This document shows positions 88 to 54,471 of a stretch of DNA of 57,450 nt, one piece after another; position 1 is the stretch's first letter; each line of letters opens with the position of its first letter. Origin of the DNA: Gracilariopsis chorda (Eukaryota > Rhodophyta > Florideophyceae > Gracilariales > Gracilariaceae); NCBI GenBank assembly GCA_003194525.1, contig NBIV01000339.1:1-57450 (forward strand). The letters run 5' to 3'. Below the pieces are notes generated by a model that worked only from the letters and a program-made list of their open reading frames with translations, was not told the DNA's origin and ran no database searches. The translations under genes were made by a program, and so were the position numbers.

Positions 88-868
88 TGAAGTGCAACGC
101 TCCTAGCGGTATCAGCACGTCGTGCGCTCATATCCCGCTCTGGCGATGCTCACCACTTTGCCGTGAAGTATGAGTGTTACACCGGTAATCTGTTTCCGTT
201 GGAAGGGCCCCAATTTGGTTGACAAGTGTAGTGCACAGCATTGCTGGCTTGTGCCACACGTGTGTAGTGTTTTGCACCCCCGTAGGGACATTATTAGTTA
301 TTATTAGTTAATTACTACTGTACTGTCAGGGCGCGGACCACCACTACTTATGTGTGTGAGCTCCGGCTGCCCGGGTCAAAGTAAACGCAACAAGCGAGTG
401 TCTGGCTCTAACTCAGGTTCCCTGGTGAGTGTCCACCTCCGTTCTGGAGAGACGCCATCCTGTGAAGGCCTAGTTACCCACCTCGTGGAGCTCAGCACAT
501 TCTTACCACTATTGTGTTTGTTTTTGTGCACGCTTTTACAGCGATTGTTATTCTTTGCCCCGTATACAGGTGTTGCTTCACTAGCAACTACCGGTGATTA
601 CCGTTGCTGTTTTCGCCACCGCCCCACTCGTGTGGACACCGTGCCGCTCTTGCGCGTCGCCCACCACTCGTGTGTCGCTGCATTTTCCGCTTTCCCACTC
701 CGTGGTCTGTCTTTGTCTCTACACCTGTACGCCAGTCGTGACGGTGAGTCCCGGTCTTACACCCGGCTCCGTGTACTCACCACAGGTGGTTCTGTCGCTG
801 CGCTACCCTGCTGAGGAGGACGTCGAACACCCTCGTGTGTCTGTCCCATCTTGGGGTATTGCACCACA
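88..868 (+). repeat. 5' LTR of element A
   Basis: 781 bp, opening TGAAGTGCAACG and closing GCACCACA. It is nearly identical to 10792-11571. An AT-rich stretch (about 289-318, repeats of ATTATTAGTTA) followed by CTACTGTACTGTCAGGG is the likeliest core promoter, since the B, C and D LTRs have similar AT-rich runs in about the same place. Open frames inside the LTR are shadows. The start ATG of a longer version of the antisense ORF lies in the matching part of the 3' copy. Confidence 0.95.
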
Positions 869-871
869 AAC

Positions 872-889: not shown

Positions 890-1148
890 GACCAGCGAAG
901 TGTGTTTTGTGATCTCGGTTTACCGGATTAGCTACCTGGTTTCCGAATTATTCGTTGAAGTTGAATTTGTGTTGTGACCAACCGTGTTGTTGAGGATCGC
1001 CGATTGCTCGGGTGTGTCTCCCACAAGTGGTTGCGTGGTACCTCTTAGGAGTGGATGTTCGCTCATTGGAGGTTTGCTTCTTTTTGTTGCTTGTTTGTGT
1101 GTTGTTTGGATTGTTTCCTGTTTTGTTTCAGTTTCAGTGTCTGCCACA

Positions 1149-3244
1149 ATGGGTTCTGGAAATGGATCCCGTGGTTCGGGCCAGCCCAAGTCGCGACAAG
1201 TCGGTGCTGACTTGCCCCCGCGCTCGCGGTCGGTCCCAGAACGTTCGGATGTTGATAACCGGAAATCCGGAAGCAGGAAGCTATCGACCAAGTCGTCGCA
1301 ACCGCCAGTTGCTGGTTCATCGGATGCCCCGCTTAGGAGATTCGTACCCGCCGCTGCGGAGAAGGACGCACTCTTTGTCGAGTTGGAGGCTCAGGTGCAG
1401 AACCTTCAAGCCCAGACCTCGGTGCTTGAAAGCTCTCACGCCGCCCTCGTCAATGAGGTTGATGCACTCCGTATGAGGATTGATGCCGATCTCGTCGGAG
1501 GTGTATCTGAAGATCTACGTACTTTACGGACTGATGTTAATTCCCTTTTGGAGGTTTTGAGGGGTTACCCAGATATGGTGAAGGATGTTGACTCGAAGTT
1601 TCATCGGGTTCTGTCCCGTCTTGAGACGTTGGAAAATACCATCAGAGGTGATGACAATGTCGCAGACACACCAGCGGTGGTTTCTCATCGATATGGTGAC
1701 CGTGCTCGCACGAAGAACCGCCCCCGAAAACGGAATGACAACGACTATGACTCGGATTCGTCCCGGTCATCGGTGAATTCCAACCGCTCTGCGGAATCCG
1801 CTTCGTCAGACTCGTCTGCTGACGGTGATCGTCGCGCTCGTTCATCGCACTCGCGTCGTTCAGCAGCCACCCATGGTGAGATTCGAGCCCGACAGAAGGG
1901 AAGAAAGCACTCCGGTTTGAAGGAACTGAAGCCTACTAACCCTTTGTACAGGAAGCTTTTATCATATCGGTATTACCGTTTGGAAGATTCCTCTTTGGAT
2001 CGTACACCCCGTGGAACTGGGAAAGTAAAAGACGGCATCAAGAGGATGGCTTTGTCGTTTCGTAACCAGAATTTCACTGGAGAGGATCCGATTCTCGTTC
2101 TGGATTTTCTTTCACGCTTTGTAGCGGAGGCAGATATCCTCGGAATGAGTGAAGGACAGGCTTACGTCGCCTTACCGTATTTCCTACGTGGAATCGCTGA
2201 AGATCAATTCAACTCTGTAAGAGGTTCGTCTCGCGCCTCTGAAGGAGGGGTCACCTGTTGGCCCGAAGCCGTTCAGTATTTACTCCGCTCGTACGCGACA
2301 GGAACCGCAATACAGGAAGCTATCCTGGCCCTACGCGATACTAAGCAACGCCCAAAGGAAACGGAGACCGAATACTCAGTCAGACTGAACAAGGCCTTCC
2401 ACCGATGTGGCAATGTTTATTCCGCTAGCGAGCGTTGTACAATGTTTGATCGACGGATTGGATCCGGCTATTCGCACCCTTGTTGCCCAACGTCGGGAAG
2501 ACAGGAGGAAAGTTACCTACTTAGAATTGGTACAGTACGCGAAGGCGGAAGGAGATGCCCTACGTGCCCGCTCCGGAAGCCGAGTCAGATCTCAGGCCCT
2601 ACACATGGAGGCCGCCCCGTCATCAGTTTCACTGTTGCCCCAGGAATACTCTCGACGTGAGGTTGACAATGTTTACTTTACTCAGCATGATCTGGTTTCC
2701 ATACCCACAACGGAGCTCCCGTCCACCACGGAACCTTCGGTGGAACTGGATAGTCAAGTGCTGTATGCAGATCGCCAACGCGTTCGCGGCCCACAAGTTC
2801 CGTATGCTAACGGTAATCGTTACCAGAGACCTGGTTGGGTGGATACGCGCGCGTCAGCGGTGAAGTTTCAGGACAACCGAAATATCGGGAGACATCAGAC
2901 GTTGATCTGCTACCTTTGTTACGACCATGGACACACGGCCCCACAGTGTATCATGACTCTGAGGGACATGCCCAAAGTGGTTGTTAACTTTGAAGCCCTG
3001 ACCCCGGAAGAACAGGCATCAGTGCCTGTCACCGCATACTTGCGTGCGAAAGACCGAGTTTCCTCGTAAGTTTACACCAGTTCAATCTGAAGCGGTACCC
3101 AGCACTGGTTCTTCCTTGGCCACCGCTTCTGCGAATCAAGCCGCTTCGGCGGATGTTTCTGTTTCTCGGCAACCGGCTCCGCAAACCGCTTCATTGCCGC
3201 GGAATACTGTTCCCGTGAAAACGGATGCCGCTCAGGAAAACTGA
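1149..3244 (+). pseudogene. gag: gag of element A, with two +1 insertions
   Basis: Structural polyprotein expected to assemble the cytoplasmic virus-like particle and package RNA. ATG at 1149 follows a non-coding leader. In order: a basic, Ser-rich N-terminus; a coiled-coil stretch matching B's; an SR/DSS-rich low-complexity segment; the conserved capsid block (YRYYRLEDSSLDRTPRGTGK, then the GEDPILVLDFLSRFV and CWPEAVQYLLRSYA motifs); and a CCHC zinc knuckle, CYLCYDHGHTAPQC (CX2CX4HX4C), near 2908-2949. Compared with element B's open gag, there is one extra G near 2448 and another near 3052. Each shifts the frame, so the reading frame passes through all three phases before ending QEN-stop at 3244. 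Both breaks could also be assembly errors, because pol is perfect. Confidence 0.9.
3235..3241 (+). promoter_or_regulatory. Putative -1 ribosomal frameshift site, element A
   Basis: GGAAAAC sits in gag phase as G GAA AAC immediately before the gag stop TGA (3242-3244), and the pol frame is -1 relative to gag and open across it. The arrangement is kept in elements B and D. A small stem (TCTC TTTTA GAGA, about 3254-3266) follows at a typical spacer distance. The heptamer is of the X-XXY-YYZ kind with GGA as a tolerated first triplet. This is an inference from layout, not a demonstrated signal. Confidence 0.6.
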
Positions 3245-6200
3245 GTGGGGGAGTCTCTTTTAGAGAGGCGCCTGAGTCGAGGTCATCGGCGCCCGAGGCG
3301 TCAAAGCCTCGCTCCCCGGTCAAGATCCTTTCAAGGCAGTTGTTGACCACCACAGACGTGGACTCGGCCCACCTCGGTGAGTTACGTCGCCCGTGGATAC
3401 GGTGTAAGAATCATCGGTCACCGGATAGAGTCATGGTTATGGCCAAGCGAAACTACAAAGTTTTCGCTGACTTTGGCCTTTCCGCCCAGTATATGGTGCG
3501 TCATCTGTCTATTCTGGATACAGGTGCCGGCCCCAATTTCATTGTCGAATCTCTCTTACCGCCTGAAGTGCGTTCTCGTGTTAGACAAGGACCCGTCATG
3601 GACGTTGCTGATGCCAATAACAACCCGTTGAAGACGGCTGGTACGGTTTCTCTGAAGATCAGGATTGGTAAATGTTCGATGCAGCTCGAATTCATCGTCT
3701 GTAAGACGCTAGCGGCCCCCGTTATCTTGGGATGTGACTTCTGCGATCGTTTCGTAGAGTCAATTCGTCCGCGTGCGCGAGAAGTTGAACTAGAAGATGG
3801 TTCCATCATTCCGATAGTTCGTCGTTCATTACGGCGTGCCTCATCCAAGTTGGTTCCTCTTCCGGCCCCCTTGCAGGATTCGTCACCTCCAAAGGAGTCG
3901 CCCAAGCTACGTGTCGCACGGCCAATCTCCATACCGCCCGAATCACAGGCGTGGGTATCGGTTACTGCCGCTCCAAGAGGATTGCGTGTTGTTCAACCGC
4001 TCACCTCGCTGTACGAGAAGTATCAATTGGCCCTGGCTAACGGTGTCGTTCAGGTTTCAAATGAACACCCCTTTCAGGTCTTGATAGCCAACTTTGGCAA
4101 GAAGCCGCAGTATCTGGCGAAGAACCAAGTAGTTGGTACTGTACTTCCGCATCCAACGGCTTTAATCCCTACAAAGGTGTGCGCAGCCGATGTACTCGGA
4201 TTAGTTCAAGAACCAGATGATACGCCTCATGCTAAGGAGGGGGAGGGTTCCCACTCTTCTGTGGAGTCGCTCAGCACGAAAGATTCGGAAAAGAAGGCCG
4301 TTCCTACGAGTTACGATAAGTTGGACCCTGTGAAGGAGTTAGAAGATCTGGATCTCGGACATGTACCGGATTCACACCGCGAGAAGTTGCGAAAAATGTT
4401 GCGAGAGTTCACCTCAATGTGGGATGGATCCCTCGGGGAGGTGTCAGCCACGGAACACCGGATTGACTTGTTACCGGACACCACGCCGATTACTCAACAC
4501 CCCTATAGGGCAGGCCCCAAAGCAAGGGAGGAAGAACAGTTCCATGTGGATAAAGTGCTCCGCGAAGGCGTGATAGAACCGGCTCAATCACCGTGGGCAT
4601 CCCCAGTGGTACTGGCTCCGAAACCCGATGGGACTTGGCGTTTTTGCATCGACTACCGTCGCCTTAATGCCGCCACTGTGAAAGACGTGTACCCCATACC
4701 GCGAATGGACGAGTATATTGACTCTCTCGGTGAGGCGACTGTCTTCTCCACATTGGATGCGAACTGGGGATACTGGCAAGTACCAGTAAGACCGGAAGAC
4801 CGTGATAAGACCGCTTTCGTCTTTCATTCAGGTTTGTACCGCTTTAAGCGTATGCCGTTTGGGTTAGCAAACGCTCCCGCTACTTTCCAGCGTGCGTTAG
4901 ATATCCTCTTGGCCCGCTTCAAATGGCGATCGTGCCTCGTCTACCTTGACGATATCATAGTCTTCTCCAACAACTTGGATGATCATTTAGAACACGTTCG
5001 TCAAATCATGACCACGTTACGTGATGCTGGAGTAACCCTCAAGCTGAGGAAGTGCGAATTCTTTACCAAATCGGTTAAGTACCTGGGCCACGTTATTCGC
5101 CCTGGGCGCTTGCTGATACAGGAAGCTCGGGTCAAATCTCTCAAAGAGGCCATGCACCCGAGAACTCAAACAGAACTCCGCTCCTTTCTAGGGTTATGTA
5201 ACGTGTATAGACGGTTCATCCCAAGCTTCGCAAAGATTGCGGGACCCCTTAATGATCTTCTTCGAAAAGGACAACCGCCAAAACTGGGCCCCCTTAACCC
5301 TGCACAGGTGGAAGCTTTCAACTCTCTGAAGGAGGCTGTCACCTCTGCACCGATATTATCGTTGCCTAAGGACGGGTTACCTTATACCGTGGATACGGAT
5401 GCGAGTGATTACCAAATTGGTTGTGCGTTATTCCAAACGACTCCCGATGGGGAACGGAAACCAATCGGTTTTTGGTCCAGAACACTCAACGTCCACGAAC
5501 GGAACTACTCAGTCCCTGAAAAGGAATGCCTCGCCATGGTATGGGCTCTGCAAACACTCAGACCATATCTGATGGGCACACGCTTCACCGTTAATACGGA
5601 CCACTCCGCTTTGCGTTGGTTAATGTCCGTCACGGAACCATCGGGCCGCTTGATGCGTTGGAGACTGCGCCTAGCTGAGTTCGATTATGAAGTCGCCTAT
5701 AAAAAGGGTTCCCTTAATACACAGGCTGATGCTTTGTCTCGTTTGGGAACGGAAGCGGAAACCCTTTCCGTCGATGACGATGATATCCCTTGTTTCCTTC
5801 TTGAAGAGAAGTTACGTTATGATCTGGTTTCAGATGATATTGCTGATGATCTGCTCGTCGCTGACGGTGACGAACCGGATACCGGATCCTTCGCACCGAT
5901 CACTCCCGAAGAGATGATCCGCGAACAGTATGGAGACCCGTTTTGTACGAAGATACGCGCCCAACTCAATGGAGGTGCTAACATTCCTTTCGGAGTCGAC
6001 TCACAAGGTTACTTGGTAAGGACTGTGTGTTCTTCGTCACAAATAGTGGTTCCCCATTCCCTCCAGTCGAGAGTATTACATCTCTCGCACTTCTCGAGGT
6101 TAGCTGCACACCCTGGTGGAAGGAGGCTATACACGACGTTACGTCGGCATTTCTACTGGCCTGCACTTGCGTTGGATTGCTATGCGATTGTTCGGTCTTG

Positions 6201-8565
6201 TACCCATTGTGCTCGTGAGCAAGTCAAGCTACGCCGCTATGCGAAGAAATTGACCCTGTTCCCGGCACGGGCTCCGCTAGAATTTGTCGCCATCGATATA
6301 CTCGGTGAGGTCCTTCACACTGCACGTGGTAACAAGTTTCTACTTGTAATAACGGATAGGTTCTCGAAGCTCGTCCGGACTGTACCGTTGAAGAAGATTA
6401 CCGCACGATCCGTGGCAGAAGCATTTGTCCGTCACTGGGTTCTCGTCTACGGTCCACCGGTTAATCTCTTATCCGATAACGGACCGCAGTTCGCCGCGCG
6501 TTTCTTCCAAGATGTTTGTAGAATACTTGACATCAGAAATCTGTTTACAACGACATACCATCCCCAAGCAAATGGGCAGGTGGAACGGTTTAACCGAACG
6601 TTGTTGTCCGCTTTACGTGCGTATGCAGTTGAGCACCCCCGTACATGGGATTTGTACACAGACACCGTGACGTACGCGTACAATACGCAGGTACACAGAG
6701 TAACTGGCTTATCACCCTTCGAGCTGGTGCTCTCACGTCCCCCACCGCCTGTGGCGATTGAGTCGCAGCCAACGCAGGACAAGTACCCGTCAACGGTTGA
6801 TCATTACCTTCGATGGAAGAGTTGGCTCACACGGATGGTCCCGGTCGCGAAATCGTCAATGACGCGAGCGCAACGAGCGTATCAACGAAATTTCGATGCC
6901 CGAGTCCGTCGGCCCCTTCCCTCACTGGAAGCAGGACAGTTCGTCTTCGTCAGGAAGGAATACTACAACCCTGAGAAGGAGAAACGCCACAAACTCTCGC
7001 CCATTGCGGATGGCCCCTACAAGGTCATTTCAGTGAGCCGAGACACAGTTGTACTGGAAGTTGGCGATTCTCATGAACGGTTCAGCCGCGATCGCGTCGT
7101 ACAAGCCCCTAACCCGCATTCGGAAGTTGTACTGGCTCCCGGAATCCCGGACGCTCGACTGATGCCCACTGCAGAAGCAGGTTCCTCGCACCGCGCAATT
7201 AGCGTTGCGCGCCCGTCGAGAGGTCTCTCGGACAGACCGATTCTGTCGCAGCAATCTTCGGAATCTCCGGTACACGTTCGCTCGCGCTTTACGCCGCGTG
7301 TCGAACCACCGTCAGACGTTGTTTCAGCCCCCGTCGCCGCCCCGGCTAAGGAGGGGGAGGAGGCCAGTCAATCCCGCTTTTCAGCGAAGTCTACACCGCC
7401 GTCGCGAGCTCCTGTAAACTCTCGTGAGGCACGGCAACCTGAAGTAGCGACACCGCACGCTACCGCCGCACGCGTGGAACTACCTCAGCAGACTGGAAGG
7501 ACCGGCCCCGCCGATGGAAAGCCTCGTGAGCACGCTACGCAGTCACCTCCGTTAAGGGAGCACACTGCCAACCGCACTCGCGAGACGCTGCAAAGAAAAC
7601 CGGACACAGACACTGTGCTGTCATCTCCCGTTGGAGGAATGAACACAGGAAGCCTGGCTCGGAACCCGGACGCTCCGTTGGCCCCCTACTCACCGGCTCC
7701 CGTCGAGAAAGTTGTAAGGACCCCCGCCGCTGCAGCGCAGACTAAGCAAGTCACGGTAGATCCCGGTGTATGGAACCCTGATGTACAGGACGCTTCGACA
7801 CCCTCGCAAGTGGATGCGCAAGGTCCCACAAATGGGTTATCTGAAATTGAATCGTCTCTCATTAGAGGAAGTCTCTCTGGTACTGTACCAAGCAGCTCAG
7901 ATCATCTGAATTCAGCTCACAGTATTGAAAGACTGGTTGCGTCAACCCCAGCAGGGATGGCCCACACCGCATATGCAGGAGAGCCTGATCGCCACGTGTT
8001 GCGAGATGTGCACCACACACCCATTCACGGTGACACAGCTCTCCAGTACAGGACGACGACAGCCAACCATTTGGATACGCCTCGCCAACCGGCACCCGCC
8101 GTGGCACATGAACCGCCTCCCCGTCACCAACCGTTGGAAATGGGACGAGGAAGCCTTCGCAGACTAGCGGTACGATCTCCCGAATCCGATGGGGTAGTGT
8201 CAACCTCAACGAGGAATTCAGTCGACCCTCATCAGGAAATCACATGGTCAACGCCGCAAGCGAACGCCACGAACCGTTGGACGGACTCATCACCGGCTTT
8301 GCCGTCGGAAACAGCCGTTGTACGGACTGCAACCGGAACCGCGAAGCGTGACGTTTACTCGAAGGAGTTCATTATCGACCGTATCGTCGGGCACAGTTAC
8401 AACCCAGAGGTATATATTGAGTACCAGGTGCGCTGGTATGGGTACCCGCCGTCCCATAACACGGACGAACCGGTAGAGAACTTGCCCCGATCGAAAATCG
8501 TGCAGTATCACCACCGTACCAGAACGGGAATACCAGGCACGATTGACCGAGCGCTCGTTGAATAA
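3241..8565 (+). CDS. pol: pol of element A: protease, RT, RNase H, integrase, chromodomain (intact)
   Basis: Replication polyprotein, probably made as a gag-pol fusion by -1 frameshifting; residue numbers count from 3241. Protease active site LDTGAG at about 93-95. RT with FCIDYRRLN, the FGLANAPATFQRA motif and catalytic YLDD at 568-571. RNase H opens VDTDASDY, first Asp at 718. Integrase zinc-binding H950/H957/C987/C990, catalytic D1019, D1079 and E1115 (the D-D-35-E spacing), and a GPY module at about 1257. A low-complexity Pro/Ser/Thr-rich linker of about 400 residues follows. The C-terminal chromodomain (about 1708-1758) starts EFIIDRIVGH and has VRWYGY; the usual TWEP is TDEP here. All 1,774 codons are open. 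Chromodomains in this family guide integration to histone-marked chromatin. It converges on the antisense ORF 294 bases downstream. Confidence 0.96.
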   Translation: MSGGVSFREAPESRSSAPEASKPRSPVKILSRQLLTTTDVDSAHLGELRRPWIRCKNHRSPDRVMVMAKRNYKVFADFGLSAQYMVRHLSILDTGAGPNFIVESLLPPEVRSRVRQGPVMDVADANNNPLKTAGTVSLKIRIGKCSMQLEFIVCKTLAAPVILGCDFCDRFVESIRPRAREVELEDGSIIPIVRRSLRRASSKLVPLPAPLQDSSPPKESPKLRVARPISIPPESQAWVSVTAAPRGLRVVQPLTSLYEKYQLALANGVVQVSNEHPFQVLIANFGKKPQYLAKNQVVGTVLPHPTALIPTKVCAADVLGLVQEPDDTPHAKEGEGSHSSVESLSTKDSEKKAVPTSYDKLDPVKELEDLDLGHVPDSHREKLRKMLREFTSMWDGSLGEVSATEHRIDLLPDTTPITQHPYRAGPKAREEEQFHVDKVLREGVIEPAQSPWASPVVLAPKPDGTWRFCIDYRRLNAATVKDVYPIPRMDEYIDSLGEATVFSTLDANWGYWQVPVRPEDRDKTAFVFHSGLYRFKRMPFGLANAPATFQRALDILLARFKWRSCLVYLDDIIVFSNNLDDHLEHVRQIMTTLRDAGVTLKLRKCEFFTKSVKYLGHVIRPGRLLIQEARVKSLKEAMHPRTQTELRSFLGLCNVYRRFIPSFAKIAGPLNDLLRKGQPPKLGPLNPAQVEAFNSLKEAVTSAPILSLPKDGLPYTVDTDASDYQIGCALFQTTPDGERKPIGFWSRTLNVHERNYSVPEKECLAMVWALQTLRPYLMGTRFTVNTDHSALRWLMSVTEPSGRLMRWRLRLAEFDYEVAYKKGSLNTQADALSRLGTEAETLSVDDDDIPCFLLEEKLRYDLVSDDIADDLLVADGDEPDTGSFAPITPEEMIREQYGDPFCTKIRAQLNGGANIPFGVDSQGYLVRTVCSSSQIVVPHSLQSRVLHLSHFSRLAAHPGGRRLYTTLRRHFYWPALALDCYAIVRSCTHCAREQVKLRRYAKKLTLFPARAPLEFVAIDILGEVLHTARGNKFLLVITDRFSKLVRTVPLKKITARSVAEAFVRHWVLVYGPPVNLLSDNGPQFAARFFQDVCRILDIRNLFTTTYHPQANGQVERFNRTLLSALRAYAVEHPRTWDLYTDTVTYAYNTQVHRVTGLSPFELVLSRPPPPVAIESQPTQDKYPSTVDHYLRWKSWLTRMVPVAKSSMTRAQRAYQRNFDARVRRPLPSLEAGQFVFVRKEYYNPEKEKRHKLSPIADGPYKVISVSRDTVVLEVGDSHERFSRDRVVQAPNPHSEVVLAPGIPDARLMPTAEAGSSHRAISVARPSRGLSDRPILSQQSSESPVHVRSRFTPRVEPPSDVVSAPVAAPAKEGEEASQSRFSAKSTPPSRAPVNSREARQPEVATPHATAARVELPQQTGRTGPADGKPREHATQSPPLREHTANRTRETLQRKPDTDTVLSSPVGGMNTGSLARNPDAPLAPYSPAPVEKVVRTPAAAAQTKQVTVDPGVWNPDVQDASTPSQVDAQGPTNGLSEIESSLIRGSLSGTVPSSSDHLNSAHSIERLVASTPAGMAHTAYAGEPDRHVLRDVHHTPIHGDTALQYRTTTANHLDTPRQPAPAVAHEPPPRHQPLEMGRGSLRRLAVRSPESDGVVSTSTRNSVDPHQEITWSTPQANATNRWTDSSPALPSETAVVRTATGTAKRDVYSKEFIIDRIVGHSYNPEVYIEYQVRWYGYPPSHNTDEPVENLPRSKIVQYHHRTRTGIPGTIDRALVE
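4232..4246 (+). promoter_or_regulatory. Internal polypurine tract 1 of element A
   Basis: CTAAGGAGGGGGAGG lies between protease and RT, encoding (A)KEGEG. It resembles the true 3' PPT (CTTAAGGAGGGGGAGA, 10776-10791), and the same 15 bases recur at the same pol position in B (18227-18241) and D (54472-54486), inside otherwise variable sequence. It is probably a second plus-strand primer, as central PPTs are in lentiviruses and Ty1. Confidence 0.6.
7346..7360 (+). promoter_or_regulatory. Internal polypurine tract 2 of element A
   Basis: A second exact CTAAGGAGGGGGAGG, in the linker between integrase and chromodomain (AKEGEEA). Counterparts are exact in C (22521-22535) and D (51284-51298), and altered by one base in B (15105-15119). 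Confidence 0.58.
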
Positions 8566-8761: not shown

Positions 8762-8767
8762 TTTATT
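8762..8767 (-). terminator. AATAAA poly(A) signal for the element A antisense gene
   Basis: The plus strand reads TTTATT, giving AATAAA on the minus strand about 92 bases beyond the antisense stop at 8859. B and D have AATAAA at matching distances (109 and 88 bases), which argues for a separate antisense mRNA. Confidence 0.6.
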
Positions 8768-8858: not shown

Positions 8859-10721
8859 TCAAGAGGATGGACCACCACTCTGATGAGGATGGCCTGGCTG
8901 CGCCAGCAGCGCTAGCATGGCCGCCCGCATTTGCGCGATGTCACCGGAAGCTCCCGAGGTATCCATTCCTAGTTCGCCAAGGAATTGGGCAATGATGGCC
9001 GCACGGTCCTGACCGGTCACACTCGCCGATGGCGTGCCACTTCCAACCGGAGCGGTATGGAAGGGACCACCACCGACGTGAGGAATGTTCCAAGACGGAA
9101 CCTGACTCGGCCCAGCCGGAGGAGCCACGGATGGACCCGGAGTAGAGTACGCCGGCACCCTGAAGCCCTCAGCTGAGGGAAGGCCACCGCCACCGTTTGC
9201 GCCCACCCCAGTCGCGGGAGGATCATTGTCCATCATTGGATCGGCCTCCTCATAGGGTTGGAAGTATCCGTCAGTGACGATGTAGCCCGTCGGATGACCC
9301 GGTGGAACATCTGGCTCGCGATCGCGGAGTGCCAATGCCTCCGGCTCGGAGATGAAGCAACGCTCTACGGGATCGTAGTAGACGTAATCACCCGCCAACG
9401 GAGTTCGGCGCCCCGGAGACCGGTCGGCTGGATTGGTACCTTGATGACGGCGACTCCATTGGATGGGCACACTGTTCCAGTCAACCTGGTCCATCGCGTC
9501 CAACAGGGAGATAGCCTCATTATAGTTGCCGGCACCGCCGAGGACGAGGGAGAGATCCAATGAACGGATGCCACTACGCACTCGCGGAGGGAGATACCAC
9601 AGTCTGAACTGGTCGTAAACCTCGAAGACGAGATACGCCGCTGCGCGGGCGACCCACTCAGTGAGGACAACGGACCACCACCCGGAGAACGGATTGCTGC
9701 ATAGTCGACTACCGATGTAGGTGATGCATGGCGGAAGCTCGATGTAGCAACCCCTGCAAGCCTCGTGGGCAGCCCACATCCTCGGTAGGGGAGCGTAACG
9801 GCCTCGCATGTACTGCGGTCGGATGCGCTCAGCTTCAACGTTCTGATACGGTATCATGTACCCGAAACGGGATCGGGAACGAAGTTCAAAACGGATCATC
9901 TGGAGGAAGTTAGACCGCGGATTATGGCGAAGATAACGGAACTCAGCACGAAGTATCGGCCTTGCCCAACACAGGTAGTTCTGGTGAACAGATGCCGCTG
10001 GACCCCGCTCTGGGATGGACGGAGCCAACGCTGCTAAGCGGTCCCCATACCCCATTTCACCCTGGGTGCGGTAGAAGGCAATATCAAACTGATATTCTTC
10101 TGGGACCGGGAATTCCGATGGAGTCCGATACAACCGCTGATACGCGAGCTGAATCATCGCGATACGCGCTTGCGCCCCACTCTCACCACGACGGTGGACC
10201 AAGACGTGCGTCGGCACGGCGACCCGGTTACGCCAGTCGAAGCTGAGAGTCATCCATACGTGGAGATCGCCCGGAAGGAGTCCGCTACCATCAGCATACT
10301 GCTCAATGAGATCTTCATTTTGCACCAACGTTGGGTGGAACCAAGGCGCACCGCTGTAGCGAGAAGGCTGCTCGGCCGGATCAACGGATACCAGCTCGTC
10401 GTACGACGGTAGTGCGCTCGCCGCAGGCGACGGAACCGACATACTCGGAGTGGCAGGTGTACCGCCCGAGGCGTTGCTTGGATGACCCGTAGAGGACAGA
10501 AGCGGTGCAGTCGGAAGACCGGAAAAGAAACCCGATGACGGAAGATTGTTCCCGCCATGCGGATCGTTGTTGCTGGGATTCATCGCTGAAGGCGCGGAAG
10601 GTAAAGCAGGTCGTCGCGGGATAGGCGGAGAGTTGCTGACGTCGAGTTGTTCTCGGTGGATATCCACTTGAGTGAAGACAAAACCCGAGCCGGATACGGT
10701 ACCATCACTTGACGCGGACAT
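8859..10721 (-). CDS. Antisense accessory ORF of element A (unknown family, intact)
   Basis: A 620-residue protein encoded opposite to gag-pol, between the pol stop and the 3' LTR. I recognise no domain, signal peptide or obvious membrane span. Conserved blocks shared with the B and D copies, in order: APWFHP; YADGSG..LPGDL; DWRNRVAVP; YRTQGEMGYGDRL; RPILRAEFRYL; RSRFGYMIPYQNVEAERI; HEACRGCYIELPP (a CxxC pair); SGWWSVVLTEW; YDQFRLWYLPPRVRSGIR; TPLAGDYVYYDP; and a C-terminal SGDIAQMRAAM. The N-terminal 100 residues and the region before the C-terminus are Pro/Gly/Ser-rich and variable. ATG 10721 is chosen because it lies 71 bases inside the LTR edge, like the starts in B and D. An in-frame ATG at 10835, inside the LTR, would give 658 residues. 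It could be an accessory, regulatory or envelope-like protein; the sequence does not decide. Confidence 0.85.
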   Translation of the reverse strand: MSASSDGTVSGSGFVFTQVDIHREQLDVSNSPPIPRRPALPSAPSAMNPSNNDPHGGNNLPSSGFFSGLPTAPLLSSTGHPSNASGGTPATPSMSVPSPAASALPSYDELVSVDPAEQPSRYSGAPWFHPTLVQNEDLIEQYADGSGLLPGDLHVWMTLSFDWRNRVAVPTHVLVHRRGESGAQARIAMIQLAYQRLYRTPSEFPVPEEYQFDIAFYRTQGEMGYGDRLAALAPSIPERGPAASVHQNYLCWARPILRAEFRYLRHNPRSNFLQMIRFELRSRSRFGYMIPYQNVEAERIRPQYMRGRYAPLPRMWAAHEACRGCYIELPPCITYIGSRLCSNPFSGWWSVVLTEWVARAAAYLVFEVYDQFRLWYLPPRVRSGIRSLDLSLVLGGAGNYNEAISLLDAMDQVDWNSVPIQWSRRHQGTNPADRSPGRRTPLAGDYVYYDPVERCFISEPEALALRDREPDVPPGHPTGYIVTDGYFQPYEEADPMMDNDPPATGVGANGGGGLPSAEGFRVPAYSTPGPSVAPPAGPSQVPSWNIPHVGGGPFHTAPVGSGTPSASVTGQDRAAIIAQFLGELGMDTSGASGDIAQMRAAMLALLAQPGHPHQSGGPSS

Positions 10722-10775
10722 ACTTACGCACAACGCGCTGTCGCGGCGAACGCTCACCGAATGTGGTTCTTGCTC

Positions 10776-10791
10776 CTTAAGGAGGGGGAGA
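10776..10791 (+). other. 3' polypurine tract of element A
   Basis: CTTAAGGAGGGGGAGA abuts the TG of the 3' LTR. It is the expected primer for plus-strand synthesis, and B, C and D have equivalent tracts at the same place. Confidence 0.93.
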
Positions 10792-11571
10792 TGAAGTGCA
10801 ACGCTCCTAGCGGTATCAGCACGTCGTGCGCTCATATCCCGCTCTGGCGATGCTCACCACTTTGCCGTGAAGTATGAGTGTTACACCGGTAATCTGTTTC
10901 CGTTGGAAGGGCCCCAATTTGGTTGACAAGTGTAGTGCACAGCATTGCTGGCTTGTGCCACACGTTTGTAGTGTTTTGCACCCCCGTAGGGACATTATTA
11001 GTTATTATTAGTTAATTACTACTGTACTGTCAGGGCGCGGACCACCACTACTTATGTGTGTGAGCTCCGGCTGCCCGGGTCAAAGTAAACGCAACAAGCG
11101 AGTGTCTGGCTCTAACTCAGGTTCCCTGGTGAGTGTCCACCTCCGTTTGGAGAGACGCCATCCTGTGAAGGCCTAGTTACCCACCTCGTGGAGCTCAGCA
11201 CATTCTTACCACTATTGTGTTTGTTTTTGTGCACGCTTGTACAGCGATTATTATTCCTTGCCCCGTATACAGGTGTTGCTTCACTAGCAACTACCGGTGA
11301 TTACCGTTGCTGTTTTCGCCACCGCCCCCCTCGTGTGGACACCGTGCCGCTCTTGCGCGTCGCCCACCACTCGTGTGTCGCTGCATTTTCCGCTTTCCCA
11401 CTCCGTGGTCTGTCTTTGTCTCTACACCTGTACGCCAGTCGTGACGGTGAGTCCCGGTCTTACACCCGGCTCCGTGTACTCACCACAGGTGGTTCTGTCG
11501 CTGCGCTACCCTGCTGAGGAGGACGTCGAACACCCTCGTGTGTCTGTCCCATCTTGGGGTATTGCACCACA
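10792..11571 (+). repeat. 3' LTR of element A
   Basis: 780 bp, near-identical to 88-868. I count five substitutions and one single-base gap. Because A landed at B's PPT edge, this LTR now lies 36 bases upstream of B's antisense ORF and in the same transcriptional direction, so its promoter could read into that ORF. Confidence 0.95.
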
Positions 11572-11607: not shown

Positions 11608-13452
11608 ATGGCGACGAAAGCACCGGGCAAGGTCCTTAAATGTAAGTCCGGTTCGCCGGTTCTCCATCCCACTCTGGGTAACGAGCACCTAGCTGCGAAC
11701 AGCGAATCTGCGACCAACTCTTCCGAAGTTCTTCCAACAACACGTACGCTTTCGCGGCCTTCTTCTCCGATTACTCGGCTTCCTTCATCTACGATGAACA
11801 GCAACAACAAAAACGGCAACAAAAACGGCAACGCCGGCAGCAACAACGGCAACGCCAACAGCAACACACCGTTACAGTACTTCTCCAGATTTCATTCCGT
11901 GCCTCTACCGCAGAGCGGTCTCTCGACTCCTTCGTAACAAACAGGCGCAAATGCGAGTGCGGCTCCTACGGGAGGGTATCTAATGGCAGCGTGGCCGTCG
12001 TACGACATGCTGGTCGGGCTGCAGCCTTCGCAACATGCGATGACTCTCCGGCTGGCGCCGTGGTTCCACCCGACTGCGGGGTTCAATGATGCGCTTCTGG
12101 CGATGTATACCGATGGAAACGGAATGCTCCCGGGTGAAGTTCCGGCAATCGTGACCACTTCGTGGGATTGGCGCAATCGCGTAGCGATACCCGTACACAC
12201 GGTAATCCGACGGGGTCGGGAATCAGCAGCTTCCGCGCACGTGGCGTTGGTCTTACTCGCTCATCAACGGCTTCGCCGGGCTCCCTTTGAGTATCCCATC
12301 CCCGATGGTATGGGCTCCGACATCGGATTGTATCGCACCCAAGGTGAAATGGGGTACCTCGACCGCCTCGCGGGTTTGGAACCACTCTTGTGGAGAAGCA
12401 TTCCCGCGGCGCGCCAAGACGCGGTGTGCTAGACACGACCGATCATTCGGGCTGAATTCCGCCATATGCGTCGCTTAGCGAGGGCCAACTTCTTGTCGAT
12501 GATACGCTTTGAGTGGCGAGCACGGTCCCGATTCGGGTATTTGATTCCGTATCAGAACTTAGAAGTCGAACGCATCCGCGTGGTCAACCGACGGGGCCGG
12601 TACGTTCCGATTCCACCGTGGTGGTGGCATCTCGAAGCGTGCCGAGGTTGCTACATCGAGTTGCCTCCCGTGATCACGTATTATGGCTCATATCTCATCG
12701 AAGATCCTCAGTCCGGGCTCTGGTCCGTGGTGGTCACCGAATGGGCGGTCCGCACAGCGGCTTTCATCTTCTGGGAGGTTTATGACCAGTACAGACTGTG
12801 TTTCATCCCGTTGCGGGTCCGTGCCGCCATCCGAGCGCTGGACTTACGAATCCCACTAGGTGGTGAGGCAAATGCTGACGAAGTAGCGGGGCTCCTCGAT
12901 TTCATCGGCCAGGTTGACTGGGCTTCAGTTCCTCTAGAGCAGAGTGGGCGTACTGCCGGTAGCCGGATACAGGACCTAACGCCAGGGCGTCGAACTCCGC
13001 TCGCGGGTGACTTCATCTACTTCAACCCTTGGGAGGGGCATGAGATCTCCACGGAGGAAGCGAACGAGCTCCGGTTTGCATCGAGATATATCCCCGAGGG
13101 GCACCCGACCGGTTTTGTTGACGCCGATGAGTACTACGACGTCTACGACGGTGAGGATAAGATGTTCGACAACGAGCCCAACGAAGGTGCCGGTCACGCC
13201 GAGGCAGAGGGAGAACCATATGGTATGGATGCTCCTGGAGTCGCCCCTGCGAGTCAGCCGTCCAATCCGTCGGTCGGTCTTCCCACTGGTGGGTCCTCTA
13301 CGCCAGGTGAGGCGAACGTGGCCTCTGCGGGTCAGGCTGCCGTGATCCCTCAGTTCCTCCGCCAAGTGGGGCTGGGAGGTAACGAAGCCAGTGGCGATGT
13401 CACCGCGATGCGGGATGCTCTGATAGCCCGACTCCAGGGAAATAACCACTAA
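11608..13452 (+). pseudogene. Antisense accessory ORF of element B (two in-frame stops)
   Basis: Homologue of the antisense proteins of A and D, running opposite to B's gag-pol. From ATG 11608 one frame runs to 13452 (614 codons), broken only by TAA at 11935-11937 and TAG at 12430-12432; the second replaces the Trp of the CWxRPI block kept in A and D. The N-terminus is basic and then Asn/Gly-rich (about residues 68-90). After that come APWFHP, SWDWRNRVAIP, YRTQGEMGYLDRL, RSRFGYLIPYQNLEVERI, EACRGCYIELPP, SGLWSVVVTEW, TPLAGDFIYFNPWE and a C-terminal SGDVTAMRDAL. There are no frameshifts in 1.8 kb, so loss was recent or only by point changes. Confidence 0.85.
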
Positions 13453-13566: not shown

Positions 13567-15104
13567 ATCCAAGTTGACTTGTGTTCCTTCTTCTTTCCTT
13601 TCCTTTCTTTCTTTCCACACCACAACTCGATCCTTCATTTCCTTTCTTCCACCGCAGTGGCTTGCTTATCCCACTTGGGCGTTTATCACCGATGCTGGGA
13701 TTCCCGTTCGCGTTCTGCGATGATATGAAACCACTTTCGAACGCGGGAGGTGCTCTATCGGCTCATCCGAATCATATTCGGGCCCGAAACCGTACCAGCG
13801 TACGCGGTACTGGATGTAACCATCTGGATGGTAAGAATGTTCCACAATGTGGTCAACAACAAACTCCTGTTTGTAGACTTCCTGGCCTCGCCATATTCGC
13901 ATTATCGTGTCCTGCACGGCAGGCTCTACCACCACTGGTGGGTGTTGGACAGTCTTCCCCGGAAGGGGCATGGCTTGGTACTGCCTGTCTATGCCCTTTG
14001 AGGGGTCATTAACCGGTTTCCGGGTAGGTTCATCCGCTTCGCGGGCCTGGAGGTCCTCGGCATGGCCGGTTGCGTCAACCACTTGATAGTGCTTATCGGG
14101 ACCCTGGATGTGGGTTAAAGTATCCCGCTTAGCGGTTTCTTCACTCCTTGAGGGGGTTTCTATTAACGATACCCTCTGAGGGGCTTCTAACGCTTCTGAA
14201 AGATGAGCATCTGGGTCGCGAACCACAGGTTTGTGTGTAGATATCCGTCTCGGCGGGGGTGCTTCAGACGACGAAGTTGATTGCACCACGGTGCGTCGTA
14301 CAGTACGCGTTGACTCGCCTCGGGCGGTAATTAGTGCCTTTGCCGTCCGTACGGTGTCGGGGTCACGTGCCGTTTGCAACGGATGGCCGAGGGTTGTCCG
14401 CGCCGTGTTGCGTTCCGCCTCCTCACGTGAGGGCGGTTGCAACGGTGCTGCCGGTGTGTTGTCTCGCTTCGGCGACGAAGTAGTTCCGTCTTTGACGTTC
14501 TTTCCTTCCAGAGTCACCGGTGCAACTTCGGCGACACTGTCGGGATCAACCGAGACATTCGGAGTGAGTTCGCGACTGCGCGATGGTCCTAAACCAGAAT
14601 CCAGCTTGCTGGTCGTTTTCCTTCCGTCCTGTACGGTGTGCTTGCCCGGCCTGGCCGGTGTGTTTTGCCGTGCAGTAGGAGTTACCACGTCCGGTGTAGT
14701 CGGCTCAGAGGATCCCGCGGGGGCCTGCTCTGCATTATCCAGCGTAGCTTTTGTTGACGAACCGTGACCCACGGAATGCGGATCAACGCTGGACGGCACA
14801 GCCGGTTCAGTATCGCGAACACGAATAGTTTCCTGCAACGATTTCACTTTGGCGAGAGACTTCCCACTGCGTGGTGCATTTTGGCGACTAGAATCCCGGT
14901 GGGGAGTGCGATCTGGCGCAGATGCGGTAGAAATTCCTCGAGAGGGTTCAGCGGGAGCTGTAGCGCGCAAATGCGAAGATGGCACGTCAGTAGACGGAAA
15001 TCTCGGTCCATTATTGTCCTTTTCGATGTTTCCGGAGTTCCGTGCACCACGGTTGTCATGACGCGACGAAGCGGTTTCAGTCTCTCGACGAGAGGTAGGG
15101 TTCT

Positions 15105-15119
15105 CCTCCCCATCCTTAG
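15105..15119 (-). promoter_or_regulatory. Internal polypurine tract 2 of element B (degraded)
   Basis: The minus strand reads CTAAGGATGGGGAGG, one change from the conserved 15-mer, which turns KEGEE into KDGEE. It lies in the integrase-chromodomain linker, as in A, C and D. Confidence 0.45.
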
Positions 15120-18100
15120 ATGGAGCGGCATGGGGAGTTGTAGAAGCGCCCAAACTGCGGGGATAGACTCCGCGCGGTGGCGTTAGAGAAGAAAGGCCAT
15201 TCGGGCCTGCGTCCGATAAGGACGGTATATCTGAGAGTCCCCTTGAAGGGTGTGGCAACACAGAAGGCCTGTTAACCACAGATGTGGGTTGTTCCACTGG
15301 GGTGTGTTGGTTCTCATCTTGGTAAGCAACCTCTACGGAGGGTGGCGGTGCCATAACAACGCGATCGCGGGAAATCCGCTCATGAGCGTCGTTCATTTCC
15401 ACCACTAAGGTGTCGTTATCCACTGGTATGACCTTGTAGGGACCATCTGCGACGGGTGAGAGCTTATGCCGTTTCTCCTCATCAGGGTTCCAGTGCTCCT
15501 TACGGACGAAGACGTAGTCACCCTCCTTAATTGGCGGTGCTGTACCTCGTACACGAGAGTCAAAATCAGGCTTGTACGCGGCCTGTGCTCGTGCCATGGA
15601 GCTCCGGGCGACCGGGATTAACTTCGTAAGCCACGCTTTCCATCGTTAGCGATAATCCTTCACGGAAGGGAAGTTTGCCAGCGTAGGCTGGGGTTCCAAC
15701 GCTACAGCGGGCGGATGACGCAAAAGTACCAATTCAAATGGAGTCAAACCCGTTGTACGGTGTATCTGTGTGTTATACGCAAACGTCAAGGCGTCAGGTC
15801 CCATGTTTTGGGGTGATCAGCAACGTAAGAACGGAGAGAGGCTAACAGCGTTCGGTTAAACCGCTCGACTTGCCCATTGCACTGGGGGTGGTAGGTCGTT
15901 GTGAACAGATTCTTGATATCGAGAATCCGACACACGTCCTCAAAGAATCGCGATGCGAATTGCTTTCCGTTATCGGATAGAATGTTAACCGGTGGTCCGT
16001 AGACAAATACCCAATGGGTGACGAAGGCTTGCGCCACCGCGAAAGCGGATATCTTCCATAAAGGTACGGTGCGAACCAACTTGGAGAAACGATCCGTGAT
16101 AACGAGTAAGAACTTATGTCCACGCTTTGTGGTGAGCAGCGGTCCCAAGAGGTCAATTGCGAAAAACTCGAGAGGGGCCCGTGCTGGAAATAACTTCAAC
16201 TTCGTTGAGTGCTTCCGGAGTTTGACCCTGTTTTTTGCACACTCCGTGCATGACCGCACAGTCGCGTAGCAGTCCACAGCCATGGCTGGCCAATAGTAAC
16301 TCCGTCGCAACGTGAGGTAAAGTTTCCGTCCACCAGCGTGTCCACCAAGTTTCGCATAGTGCGACAAGTGCAACACTATAGCTTGTAGAGTATGCGGTAC
16401 CACTACCTGTGGGTTTGTTTGAACCGTCCTGACGAGGTATCCAACATCACTCACCTCGAAAGGGAGTTGCGCACCGCCATTAAGTCGGGCGCAAATCTGA
16501 GTACAGAAGGGATCACCTTGTTGTTTTCTGACCATCCCCTCCGGGGGTATTGGCACGAAATTACCCGGTGGGGGTTTCTGAGCATCGTCCGAGACGAGTA
16601 GTGCGTCCAGTTCATCATCCGATTCCGGTTCTTCATCCGAGTTATCGGGTTCACGGTGCGGGGCCTCCGGTTCTCGACCGTTGACGACGAAGCAAGGAAT
16701 GTCCTCGTCCCCAGCGGGTAGAATTTCACCATCCGTGGGTAAACGCGACAGCGCGTCCGCCTGAGCGTTCTTTGTGCCCTTCTTGTAGATCATCTCGAAG
16801 TCGAATTCCGCAAGGCGGAGCCTCCAACGCATTAAGCGGCCTGACGGTTCAGAGACTGTCATGAGCCATCGTAATGACGAGTGATCCGTGTAAACGGTGA
16901 AGTGCACACCCATAAGATAGGGGCGGAGAGTGGAGAGTGCCCACACAACTGCAAGACACTCTTTCTCCGAGACGGAGTAATTCCGCTCGTGAACATTCAG
17001 TGAGCGTGACCAGTACCCAATAGAGGTTCGTTCTCCTTCGGGAGTTGTCTGAAAGAGAGCGCAACCTACTTGGTAGTCACTAGCATCCGTGTCTACGGTA
17101 AACGGTAGTCCGGGTTTCGGTGACGATAAGATCGGTGCTGATGTTACAGCCTCCTTGAGGGAGTTAAACGCCTTCGTCTCGACGGACGTAAAGGGTTCCA
17201 ATTTCGGTGGTTGGCCTTTCCGCAAGAGCGCGTTCAAGGGTGCTGAGATATCCGCGCAATTCGGGATAAACCGTCGATAGACGTTGACTAATCCTAGAAA
17301 GGAGCGTAGTTCCGTTTGAGTGGCGGGTTCCTTCGCTTGACGGAGCGACTTAACTCGGGCTTCCTCGATCATCACACGCCCAGGGCGGATTATGTGGCCC
17401 AGATACTTCACTGTATCTGTAAAGAACTCACATTTCCTCAACTTGAGAGTAACTCCAGCTTCACTTAGCGTGGTCATGATATCTCTCACGTGTGTGAGGT
17501 GGTCATCCAGATTATCTGAGAATACTATGATATCGTCCAGGTAGACGAGGCATGTACGCAATTTGAAGCGAGCCAGTAGTATGTCGATAGCACGCTGGAA
17601 AGTAGCGGGGGCATTTTTCAAACCAAAAGGCATCCGTTTTAAACGGTAGAGTCCGGAGTGACAGACAAAAGCAGTCTTGTCACGGTCCTGTTCCCTGACG
17701 GGCACCTGCCAGTATCCCCAATTGGCGTCTAGAGCCGTGAAAACGGTAGCATTTCCGATTGAATCGATGTACTCATCCATTCGTGGGATCGGGTACACAT
17801 CCTTGATGGTTACGGCGTTCAGTCGACAGTAGTCGATGCAAAAGCGCCAGGATCCATCCGGTTTCGGAGCCAGTACCACTGGGGATGCCCACGGCGACTG
17901 AGCCGGTTCTATTACTCCAGCTCGGAGCATCTTTTCCACTTGGAATTCTTCCTCTTCTCGAGCTTTAGGGCCTGCCCTATAGGGGTGCTGAGCGATCGGC
18001 CTGGTATCAGGTAGTAAGTCAATCCGGTGCTCCGTTGTAGTAATCTCCCCTAGGGAGCCATCCCACATCGTGGTGAAATTCCGTAGCATCTCACGGAGAC

Positions 18101-18226
18101 GTTCACGGTGCGATTCCGGCACATGACCGAGGTCAAGTTCCTCGAGTTCTTTCACGGGATCAATCCGGTCGTAACTCGTTGGAACCGGCTTAGCATCCGA
18201 GCATTTCGGCATTTGGACGGCAGTGT

Positions 18227-18241
18227 CCTCCCCCTCCTTAG
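18227..18241 (-). promoter_or_regulatory. Internal polypurine tract 1 of element B
   Basis: Exact CTAAGGAGGGGGAGG on the minus strand, between protease and RT (SKEGEDT). Confidence 0.58.
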
Positions 18242-19210
18242 AGTGAACGAGATCGAGGACATTGGCAGCGGTCATTCTCGTGGGAACCATTGCGGTGGGG
18301 TGGGGCATTACCGAACCAATGACTTGGTTTTTCACCAGTGACTGAGGCGTAGAGCCTAGATTGGCGACCAGCATGTTGAACGGTTTATCGGGCTCAATTT
18401 GAGCTACTCCATTCGCCACGGCGAGTTGATACCTATCATATAAGGATGAAAGGGGTTGAATTACTCGTAAACCGTTTTGACGGGAAGTGACTCGTACCCA
18501 AACTTGGGATTCCGGTGGAAGTTGGACAGACGCGGCAACGCGGAGCTTTGTAGAGTCCCGGGAAGCCGGTGTGAGTTCCTGCGCAGCAGGTAATGGAACG
18601 TGCTTCTTCGAGGCACGTCGTAGAGGACGACGTACGATCGGAACGGAGGAGCCGTCTTCCATTTCCACACGTCTTAGACGGGGCCTGATGGCATCGACGA
18701 ATCTGTCACAGAAGTCGCATCCCAAGATCAAAGGGGCGGCAAGTTTCCGACAAACAATAAAGTTGAGTTTCACAAGAAAGGAGCCAAGGCGCATGACCAG
18801 GTCCATTGTCCCAACCGTTGATAAAGGGTTATCATTCGCATCCGCGAAATCCGGTATCCCGCCTTGGCGGATCTGAGACTGCAATGACGGTGGCAGGAGC
18901 GACTCAACGATGAAGTTCGGGCCTGCACCTGTGTCCGAAACAGTGAGAACTCGCACCATAAACTGGGTGGAAAGGCCAAGGTCAGCATATACCTTGTAGT
19001 TTCTCTTGGCCATTACCAAAACTCTGTCCGGGAACCGGTTGTTTCGAACACGTTTCCACGGTCGACGCAGAACACTAAAGTGTTCAGAGTTCACGTCTGA
19101 GAAGGCCTGTTTCCTAGTAAGGATTTTGACCGGGGAGCGAGGCAGTGACGCCTCGGGCGCCTTCAACCTCAACTCTGAGGGCGCCTCGCCCGTAGGGGAG
19201 ACTCCCGAAA

Positions 19211-21325: not shown

Positions 21326-21419
21326 GTGTAGACCAAAAACTCCCACGAAGTGGTAAGAAACCAAAAGTTTGGACAGTGAATCTCCGAGGAGAGGTAATAC
21401 AAAACCTAACCGTTTCCGA

Positions 21420-23713: not shown

Positions 23714-23954
23714 CGTTTCCGCGCGAGCGGAGGGCGATAGGAAAGGATAACAAGGCAAGGTCCGTCGAAGACGGGGAACTCATACGAGAATCACTGTTAT
23801 AAACGGGAAGGTTTATTCAAGGGAGCAGCTAGCTCTCCACAACACTATACTACAATAGCTGGCTATGCCAGGAAAGAAGAACCGGAGACGGCGCGCGCGC
23901 TTTTATCACCCATTTTCGTCTGGGAACCCTTCGCGTCCGCGGTCGTTTTCCCGT
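23714..23954 (-). pseudogene. Element C spacer with remnant of a deleted antisense ORF
   Basis: On the minus strand the ATG at 23913 and about the first dozen codons match the start of D's antisense ORF (ATGGGTGATAAAAGCGCG). At GGTTCT (complement 23878-23883) the sequence jumps to what lies just beyond D's antisense stop. In D, GGTTCT occurs at both 47966-47971 and 49744-49749, so C has lost 1,778 bp between 6-bp direct repeats. The downstream AATAAA (complement 23812-23817) remains. Confidence 0.85.
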
Positions 23955-23969
23955 CTTAGGGGGGAGATA
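23955..23969 (+). other. 3' polypurine tract of element C
   Basis: CTTAGGGGGGAGATA, ending at the TG of the LTR. Confidence 0.9.
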
Positions 23970-49810: not shown

Positions 49811-49816
49811 AATAAA
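49811..49816 (+). terminator. AATAAA poly(A) signal for the element D antisense gene
   Basis: AATAAA 88 bases past the antisense stop and before the converging pol stop at 49915. Confidence 0.6.
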
Positions 49817-51283: not shown

Positions 51284-51298
51284 CCTCCCCCTCCTTAG
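51284..51298 (-). promoter_or_regulatory. Internal polypurine tract 2 of element D
   Basis: Exact CTAAGGAGGGGGAGG on the minus strand (SKEGEE), in the integrase-chromodomain linker. Confidence 0.58.
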
Positions 51299-54200: not shown

Positions 54201-54471
54201 GGTTGTGCAACCGGTCGCGCACCGGGGATTAAATCGATCCGGTGTTCCGTTGCATCAATCTCGCCAAGCGAGCCATCCCACATTGTGGTGAATTCCCGTA
54301 ACATAGTACGGAGTTTGTTGCGGTGCGACTCTGGCACGTGGCTGAAGTCCAGCGCTTCAAGTGCTTTTTCCGGATCAATCCGGTCATTGCTCGATGGAGC
54401 ATTGTCCTGTGGAACAGGTGTGGTTCGCAATTCCGAGTTACTCGGTATGTTCGACGCTGAAGTAGCGGTTT

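What the first reader, a model, noticed from the sequence alone, without database searches (positions are those of the whole stretch)
8859..10721. An undescribed antisense gene carried by a family of chromodomain retrotransposons
Seen: three separate elements (A 10721-8859, B 11608-13452, D 47936-49723) each carry a homologous ORF of about 600 codons between pol and the 3' LTR, opposite in direction to gag-pol. Known: antisense ORFs in this position exist in some plant Tat-lineage Ty3/gypsy elements (Grande, Retand, RIRE2), but I know of none in chromoviruses, and this protein resembles no family I recognise. Inference: an accessory gene (regulator, silencing suppressor, particle or nuclear-import factor) maintained with the element.
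Basis: partly seen in the sequence, partly recalled or inferred. Interest (0 to 1): 0.92.

Follow-up and report, generated by a model that had tools for sequence, protein, structure and literature searches.

The report
Antisense gene in red-algal retrotransposons
An abundant family of jumping genes in what looks like a red seaweed carries, on its opposite strand, an evolutionarily protected gene for a protein that matches no known family, probably a helper or regulator of the jumping gene.

Summary
The antisense ORF is real and is a gene. It lies between pol and the 3' LTR, facing pol, and occurs in at least dozens of stop-free copies in this 91.3 Mb genome, probably a red alga. All 40 top-scoring loci read have the matching pol end facing it. 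Representatives of four subfamilies share 39-54% identity and 143 invariant positions. dN/dS is 0.23 at dS 0.31, versus 0.60-0.72 for the adjoining pol end; the other five frames carry 12-31 stops. AATAAA lies 84-92 nt after the stop in most full-length copies of three subfamilies. Pfam, NCBIfam, PHROGs, PDB sequences, IMG/VR and GTDB gave no relative. Corrections: B is broken by two stops; the frame of A is open from an ATG inside the LTR. New: element C, L069 and 39 further scored places lack the gene through the same deletion, so it is dispensable in cis or supplied in trans. Best reading: an antisense mRNA from the 3' LTR encodes a trans-acting accessory regulator, as suggested for plant antisense ORFs and known for HTLV HBZ. 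Function is inferred. Novelty: new protein family in a known kind of position.

The parts
8859..10835 (-). Antisense ORF of element A, 658 codons from ATG 10835 (inside the 3' LTR); alternative ATG at 10721 (codon 39); true start not known
   Evidence: family and selection
11608..13452 (+). Antisense ORF of element B, broken by two in-frame stops (codons 110 and 275)
   Evidence: alignment of its pieces
47936..49723 (+). Antisense ORF of element D, 595 codons, no stop
8762..8767 (-). AATAAA 91 nt after the stop of the A antisense ORF (possible polyadenylation signal)
49811..49816 (+). AATAAA 87 nt after the stop of the D antisense ORF
88..868 (+). 5' LTR of element A; target-site duplication ATATC at 83-87 and 11572-11576
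   Evidence: boundary read from sequence
10792..11571 (+). 3' LTR of element A; the antisense frame begins inside it
   Evidence: 5 mismatches between the two LTRs
984..3069 (+). gag region of element A
   Evidence: similarity to gag of D
3340..8565 (+). pol of element A: RT, RNase H, integrase (H2C2, rve), C-terminal chromodomain; only a weak protease match below cut-off
13666..21364 (-). gag-pol region of element B (ORFs 13666-15597, 15786-19172, 19211-21364)
49915..56716 (-). gag-pol region of element D; no second LTR copy found before the contig end
47072..47878 (-). 3' LTR of element D; antisense ATG 57 nt outside it
22344..24793 (+). Element C: D-type pol end and 3' LTR (23970-24793) with the antisense ORF deleted; junction near 23876-23886

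Best explanation
It is a protein-coding accessory gene of a chromodomain Ty3/gypsy lineage in a probably red-algal genome. Shown: a frame of about 600 codons facing pol, under purifying selection between subfamilies, starting within about 80 nt of the 3' LTR edge (inside it in A types) and, in three of four subfamilies, followed by an AATAAA. Inferred: an antisense promoter in or across the 3' LTR makes a separate mRNA for this protein, as for HTLV HBZ. The protein (low-complexity S/T/P/N-rich N terminus, conserved core of about 370 residues, acidic tail, short C-terminal motif) acts in trans on the element's expression or replication and is neither particle protein nor envelope. Elements that lost the gene still spread, using protein supplied by full copies. 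Protein-coding accessory gene: about 0.97. Trans-acting regulator as the function: about 0.4.
For: 40/40 loci with the pol end facing the ORF; 76 of 77 coordinate pairs convergent. dN/dS 0.23 at dS 0.31 (A vs L010) against 0.60-0.72 for the last 400 codons of pol in three such pairs; 0.18-0.29 between subfamilies, dS saturated; 0.40 as ratio of means over 28 D-type copies. Only this frame is open; the other five have 12-31 stops. 143 invariant positions in representatives of four subfamilies. AATAAA 84-92 nt after the stop in most full-length A-, B- and D-type copies. The ATG lies about 35-58 nt outside the LTR edge motif in the B and D copies where it was found, and inside the LTR in A types (counted from the end of the motif). 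Gene-less copies: 40 of 40 scored places, C included, match across the deletion junction. Core pI 5.9-7.9, tail pI 4.05-5.0.
Against: No transcript, peptide or localisation data. Only one short basic run, in one of five sequences, and no other sign of nuclear import. No TATA pattern in the 313-1020 nt read upstream, except one TATATA at the far end of the B stretch. AATAAA is not in the 400 nt after the stop of the E type, is at 137 nt in L072 and at 32 nt in three D copies with a longer frame, and is missing after the early stops of L009 and L024. Seven very close A copies give dN/dS 0.98, one close D pair 1.04 and the B pair 0.56; I read the high values as decay after insertion. Gene-less copies have spread, so the gene is not needed in cis and may be needed little. 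The gene-less C44 copy has an interrupted gag frame, so it does not itself show an otherwise complete element. Both AlphaFold models are unusable (mean pLDDT 33.5 and 31.4), so no fold supports any function.
Confidence: 0.5

Rival explanations
1. A silencing suppressor: the protein blocks host small-RNA or chromatin silencing triggered by the sense/antisense RNA overlap, so elements that carry it protect themselves and their gene-less relatives.
For: Would explain spread of the gene-less subfamily and a protein that diverges fast yet is constrained: 39-54% identity between subfamilies, while the RTs scoring below the A group are 80-84% identical to that of A. Structural likeness to a dsRNA-binding protein was reported for 5' extra ORFs of maize and sorghum Tekay elements (PMC11728184, passages).
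Against: No dsRNA-binding family matches in Pfam; no usable fold; acidic tail.
Confidence: 0.2
2. A structural or particle gene (envelope-like, capsid accessory or nucleocapsid chaperone) made from a separate antisense mRNA.
For: Length and conservation suit a structural protein; other plant LTR elements carry sense envelope-like ORFs between pol and the 3' LTR (PMC7264820, passages).
Against: No clear membrane segment: maximum 19-residue hydropathy 0.95-1.62, only the B copy reaching the usual borderline of 1.6 (borderline recalled). No similarity to gag (hhalign probability 0.2%) or pol (0.0%); no gag family in Pfam.
Confidence: 0.12
3. A captured host or viral gene, kept because the element copies it, with no role for the element.
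For: No relative was found, so an unknown donor cannot be excluded; the source of plant antisense ORFs is unknown too (PMC11963269, Discussion).
Against: Purifying selection between subfamilies; same place facing pol in all loci read and beside ten chromodomains of distant subfamilies.
Confidence: 0.05
4. The antisense RNA, not the protein, is what matters (copy-number control as in yeast Ty1), with the ORF a by-product.
For: Antisense RNA control is reported for Ty1 (PMC12786077, passages) and discussed for plant antisense ORFs (PMC7264820, section 8).
Against: Constraint follows the reading frame: changes at codon positions 1, 2, 3 are 54, 41, 132, and the frame is open in many copies. RNA control alone would not do this.
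Confidence: 0.08

Closest known systems
Antisense extra ORFs of plant Tat-lineage elements (Retand ORF4 with Transposase_28 PF04195, maize Grande gene23, rice RIRE2) and PvRetro13
   Same: Between pol and 3' LTR, antisense to gag-pol, kept in many copies, function unknown
   Different: Retand is a non-chromovirus lineage of flowering plants (PMC11963269, abstract, two sections and passages). Here the host looks like a red alga, pol ends in a chromodomain, and none of five members matches PF04195 or any Pfam family above cut-off. In Grande the antisense promoter lies upstream of gene23 (PMC7264820, section 8); here it is unknown
HTLV-1 HBZ and other retroviral antisense genes
   Same: Antisense gene at the 3' LTR; HTLV has an antisense promoter inside the 3' LTR (PMC7264820, section 8)
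   Different: HBZ is a bZIP protein (recalled); this protein matches no such family and its transcription is untested
5' extra ORFs of plant Tekay chromoviruses
   Same: Extra gene in a chromodomain-bearing Ty3/gypsy element, conserved over many copies; related groups lack it
   Different: At the 5' end, marked ORF(+) for sunflower Tekay 13-2 (PMC11728184, passages)
Chromodomain Gypsy elements of brown algae (Ectocarpus) and oomycetes (Chronos)
   Same: Ty3/gypsy with C-terminal chromodomain outside land plants
   Different: The passages that hold 'antisense' in the Ectocarpus paper concern small RNAs, none an antisense gene (PMC12477816, passages)

Membership tests
Antisense 3' extra ORF (aORF-3R / eORF-3'R) of LTR retrotransposons | ORF of at least 250 codons between pol and 3' LTR, reverse to gag-pol (definition of PMC6317226) | tested here: met
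   A and D in the window; 40/40 loci facing pol
Antisense 3' extra ORF (aORF-3R / eORF-3'R) of LTR retrotransposons | Carried by many copies of the family, not one transduced copy | tested here: met
   67, 74 and 150 scored hits from three queries, out of 1658, 1932 and 887 first-look candidates; what share of all copies carry it is not known, and a gene-less subfamily exists
Retand-type antisense gene | Transposase_28 domain, PF04195 | tested here: not met
   not among matches at E up to 1 in any of 5 members
Retand / Tat lineage | pol without chromodomain | tested here: not met
   Chromo PF00385, 4.4e-08 and above cut-off, at the end of pol of A
Ty3/gypsy (Metaviridae) | RT-RNase H-integrase order and Ty3-like RT | tested here: met
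   (best PDB matches are Ty3 RT, 1.1e-78, and Ty3 Gag-Pol)
Chromovirus clade | chromodomain at the integrase C terminus | tested here: met
   pol ends of the same type in 40/40 loci (in L039 the match stops before the chromodomain, which one search lists beside it)
Chromovirus clade | RT/integrase phylogeny inside the chromovirus clade | not tested
   no reference set (REXdb/GyDB) at hand; chromodomain Gypsy elements outside chromoviruses exist (PMC12477816)
Retroviral antisense regulators (HBZ-like) | antisense transcript from the 3' LTR | not testable with these tools
   only the positions of ATG and AATAAA were seen; no RNA data
Envelope-like 3' ORF | sense orientation with a membrane-spanning segment | tested here: not met
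   antisense in all loci read; maximum 19-residue hydropathy 0.95-1.62, borderline only in the B copy

The most novel reading that the evidence does not exclude
A lineage of red-algal chromodomain retrotransposons has evolved or captured, independently of plants and retroviruses, a trans-acting antisense regulator of unknown fold, and the genome holds a two-tier system: full elements that make the protein, and a derived subfamily that lost the gene in one deletion and spreads on the protein made by the others.
Probability: 0.35. Interest if true: 0.75.

Novelty: new variant of a known kind. Interest (0 to 1): 0.58.

Why it matters
Antisense accessory genes are described for retroviruses and plant Tat elements. 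One under measurable selection in an apparently red-algal chromodomain lineage, with a protein of no known family, suggests that LTR elements arrived at this arrangement more than once. The natural contrast between copies with and without the gene in one genome makes the open question of what such genes do for the element testable by transcript, protein and population data.

Tried and rejected
Homology: Pfam, NCBIfam, PHROGs, PDB sequences, IMG/VR (43, 77) and GTDB prokaryotes (78) gave no relative; Pfam matches were all below cut-off and the best PDB profile hit had E = 3.9. The collection scans go by short patterns and would miss distant relatives. Structure: two AlphaFold jobs from the window's own sequences gave mean pLDDT 33.5 and 31.4, so no fold search was made. 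Derivation from gag or pol: not supported. Splicing as cause of element C: considered because C lacks just the ORF; rejected on reading the junction by eye, where no GT donor is seen and a short shared motif (GAACCGGA-like) lies at both ends. Ancestral absence of the gene in C: rejected, because the first codons of the ORF remain and the A, B, D and E types have the gene. Host gene in disguise: no copy outside an element was seen, but only best-scored copies were examined. Promoter motifs: nothing worth reporting. Tandem 6 kb array on contig C15: could not be read. Dropped rows: of 43 copies, L007, L009, L024 and L039 were left out of the dN/dS set because no ATG-to-stop frame longer than 580 codons was found; only tblastn hits below E = 0.5 were printed.

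Full report
What was checked. The window is contig C339 of a 91.3 Mb, 1081-contig genome. Several host-like genes in it are long uninterrupted frames, and the genome holds seven phycobilisome-linker matches over the cut-off; of 14 control genomes searched alike only a cyanobacterium had any. I take the host as a red alga; the record is unnamed and the species was not established.

Anatomy. Element A has LTRs at 88-868 and 10792-11571 and the target-site duplication ATATC; the LTRs differ by 5 mismatches and one gap column, so it is young. A sits at the 3' LTR edge of element B, which runs on the minus strand up to 22343. D runs on the minus strand from 47072 towards the contig end. C is a D-type element on the plus strand without its left end. 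The pol of A carries RT, RNase H, integrase and a C-terminal chromodomain, and its RT is closest in the PDB to Ty3. The antisense ORF lies between pol and the 3' LTR and faces pol. In A it is open from 10835, inside the LTR; in D it is 595 codons; in B it is broken by two stops.

Genome-wide. The A protein found 67 scored copies of 1658 first-look candidates, the D protein 74 of 1932, and a 105-residue piece of a distant copy 150 of 887; the tool calls such counts lower bounds. Stop-free over the match are 61 of 74 and 19 of 67; 16 of the 38 B-type rows show a single TAA, which comparison of L071 with window element B suggests is the normal stop of that type. The 40 loci read are the 10 and 30 best hits, not a random sample; in all 40 the C-terminal part of pol lies on the other strand facing the ORF (in L039 the match ends before the chromodomain, which one search lists next to it). 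From coordinates alone 77 ORF/chromodomain or ORF/RT pairs were close enough to test and 76 were convergent; the exception pairs the ORF of A with the RT of its neighbour B. Ten of the pairs are chromodomains beside hits of the distant-piece search. Both lists are capped, so this does not say what share of copies has the gene.

Where it is absent. Of the 30 best chromodomain loci, 27 belong to a second chromodomain lineage with no relative of the ORF in the roughly 1.4-1.6 kb read downstream, L049 resembles a host CHD helicase (my reading, no database result), L053 holds a decayed distant copy, and L069 is a D-type element without the ORF. L069 and element C share one deletion junction. A search with 321 bases around that junction scored 40 of 1859 candidates; all 40, C itself included, match across it at 95-100%, and none has a listed ORF hit within 3 kb. 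One of them, on C44, is 97% identical to D over 3.8 kb of gag-pol, with an interrupted gag frame and a 1385-codon frame around its chromodomain. The first codons of the ORF remain in C, so this is a loss. The gene is lineage-bound and not needed in cis.

Is it a gene? From codon alignments of 39 of 43 copies, A versus L010 gives dN/dS 0.23 at dS 0.31, with changes at codon positions 54, 41 and 132; the adjoining 400 codons of pol give 0.60-0.72 in three such pairs. Between subfamilies the values are 0.18-0.29 with saturated dS; 28 D copies give 0.40. Against: seven very close A copies give 0.98, one close D pair 1.04 and the B pair L071/L072 0.56; I take the high values as decay of inserted copies. 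The other five frames carry 12-31 stops. AATAAA lies 91-92, 84 and 87-88 nt after the stop in full-length A, B (L071) and most D copies; it is at 32 nt in three D copies with a longer frame and at 137 nt in L072, and is not found in the E type or after the early stops of L009 and L024. With 143 invariant positions among representatives of four subfamilies I consider a protein-coding gene as good as shown.

What the protein is. No family, no PDB relative, nothing in the prokaryotic and viral collections, and no relation to gag or pol. It has a low-complexity N terminus, a conserved core of about 370 residues, an acidic tail and a short C-terminal motif shared by A, B and D and weak in E. No clear membrane segment and no clear nuclear signal. 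AlphaFold failed, so the fold is open.

How it may work. The ATG is so near the LTR (about 35-58 nt outside in B and D, inside in A) that its promoter should lie in or beyond the LTR: inference from position. I propose a trans-acting regulator; spread of the gene-less subfamily fits a product shared in trans, but equally fits a dispensable gene. A silencing suppressor is the main rival.

Known or new. Antisense ORFs in this position are established for plant elements (PMC11963269, abstract, two sections and passages; PMC7264820, passages and two sections; PMC6317226, passages), and extra 5' ORFs for plant chromoviruses (PMC11728184, passages). One survey found no retrotransposon chromodomains in three red algae (PMC3350952, passage), while an abstract says that chromoviruses occur in red algae (PMC3605345, search listing). 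I saw no description of such a gene in red algae, nor of an antisense 3' gene in chromodomain elements; the searches were made, in open-licence papers only and mostly seen as listings, so this is weak evidence of absence. I class it as a new variant of a known kind.

Noticed in passing
window 22344-24793; L069; 40 places: A D-type subfamily lacking just the antisense gene: element C, L069 and 39 further scored places share one microhomology-like deletion junction.
   Followed up: yes
G000 contig C15, 287112, 293129, 299152, 305166 (minus strand): Four antisense-ORF hits spaced 6014-6023 bases apart suggest a tandem array of a short element that keeps this ORF; it could not be read.
   Followed up: partly
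window 255-264 (5' LTR of A) and 47766-47771 (D); LTR part of L071 and L073: CACGTG near an AT-rich block lies in the LTRs of four subfamilies and could serve transcription both ways; by eye only. The 3' LTR of A has it mutated.
   Followed up: no
window 49790-49816: Hairpin-like GGGAGCTAGCTGCTCCC just before the AATAAA of the D antisense ORF (by eye).
   Followed up: no
window 871-896: After the 5' LTR of A, CTGGTCT and AGACCAG form an inverted repeat in the expected primer-binding region (by eye); primer type not determined.
   Followed up: no
loci L041-L070: A second, mostly decayed chromodomain lineage (27 of 30 loci) in the same genome shows no such ORF.
   Followed up: partly
window 3340-8565: The chromodomain of A is separated from the integrase by a low-complexity stretch of several hundred residues, which seems unusual.
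   Followed up: no
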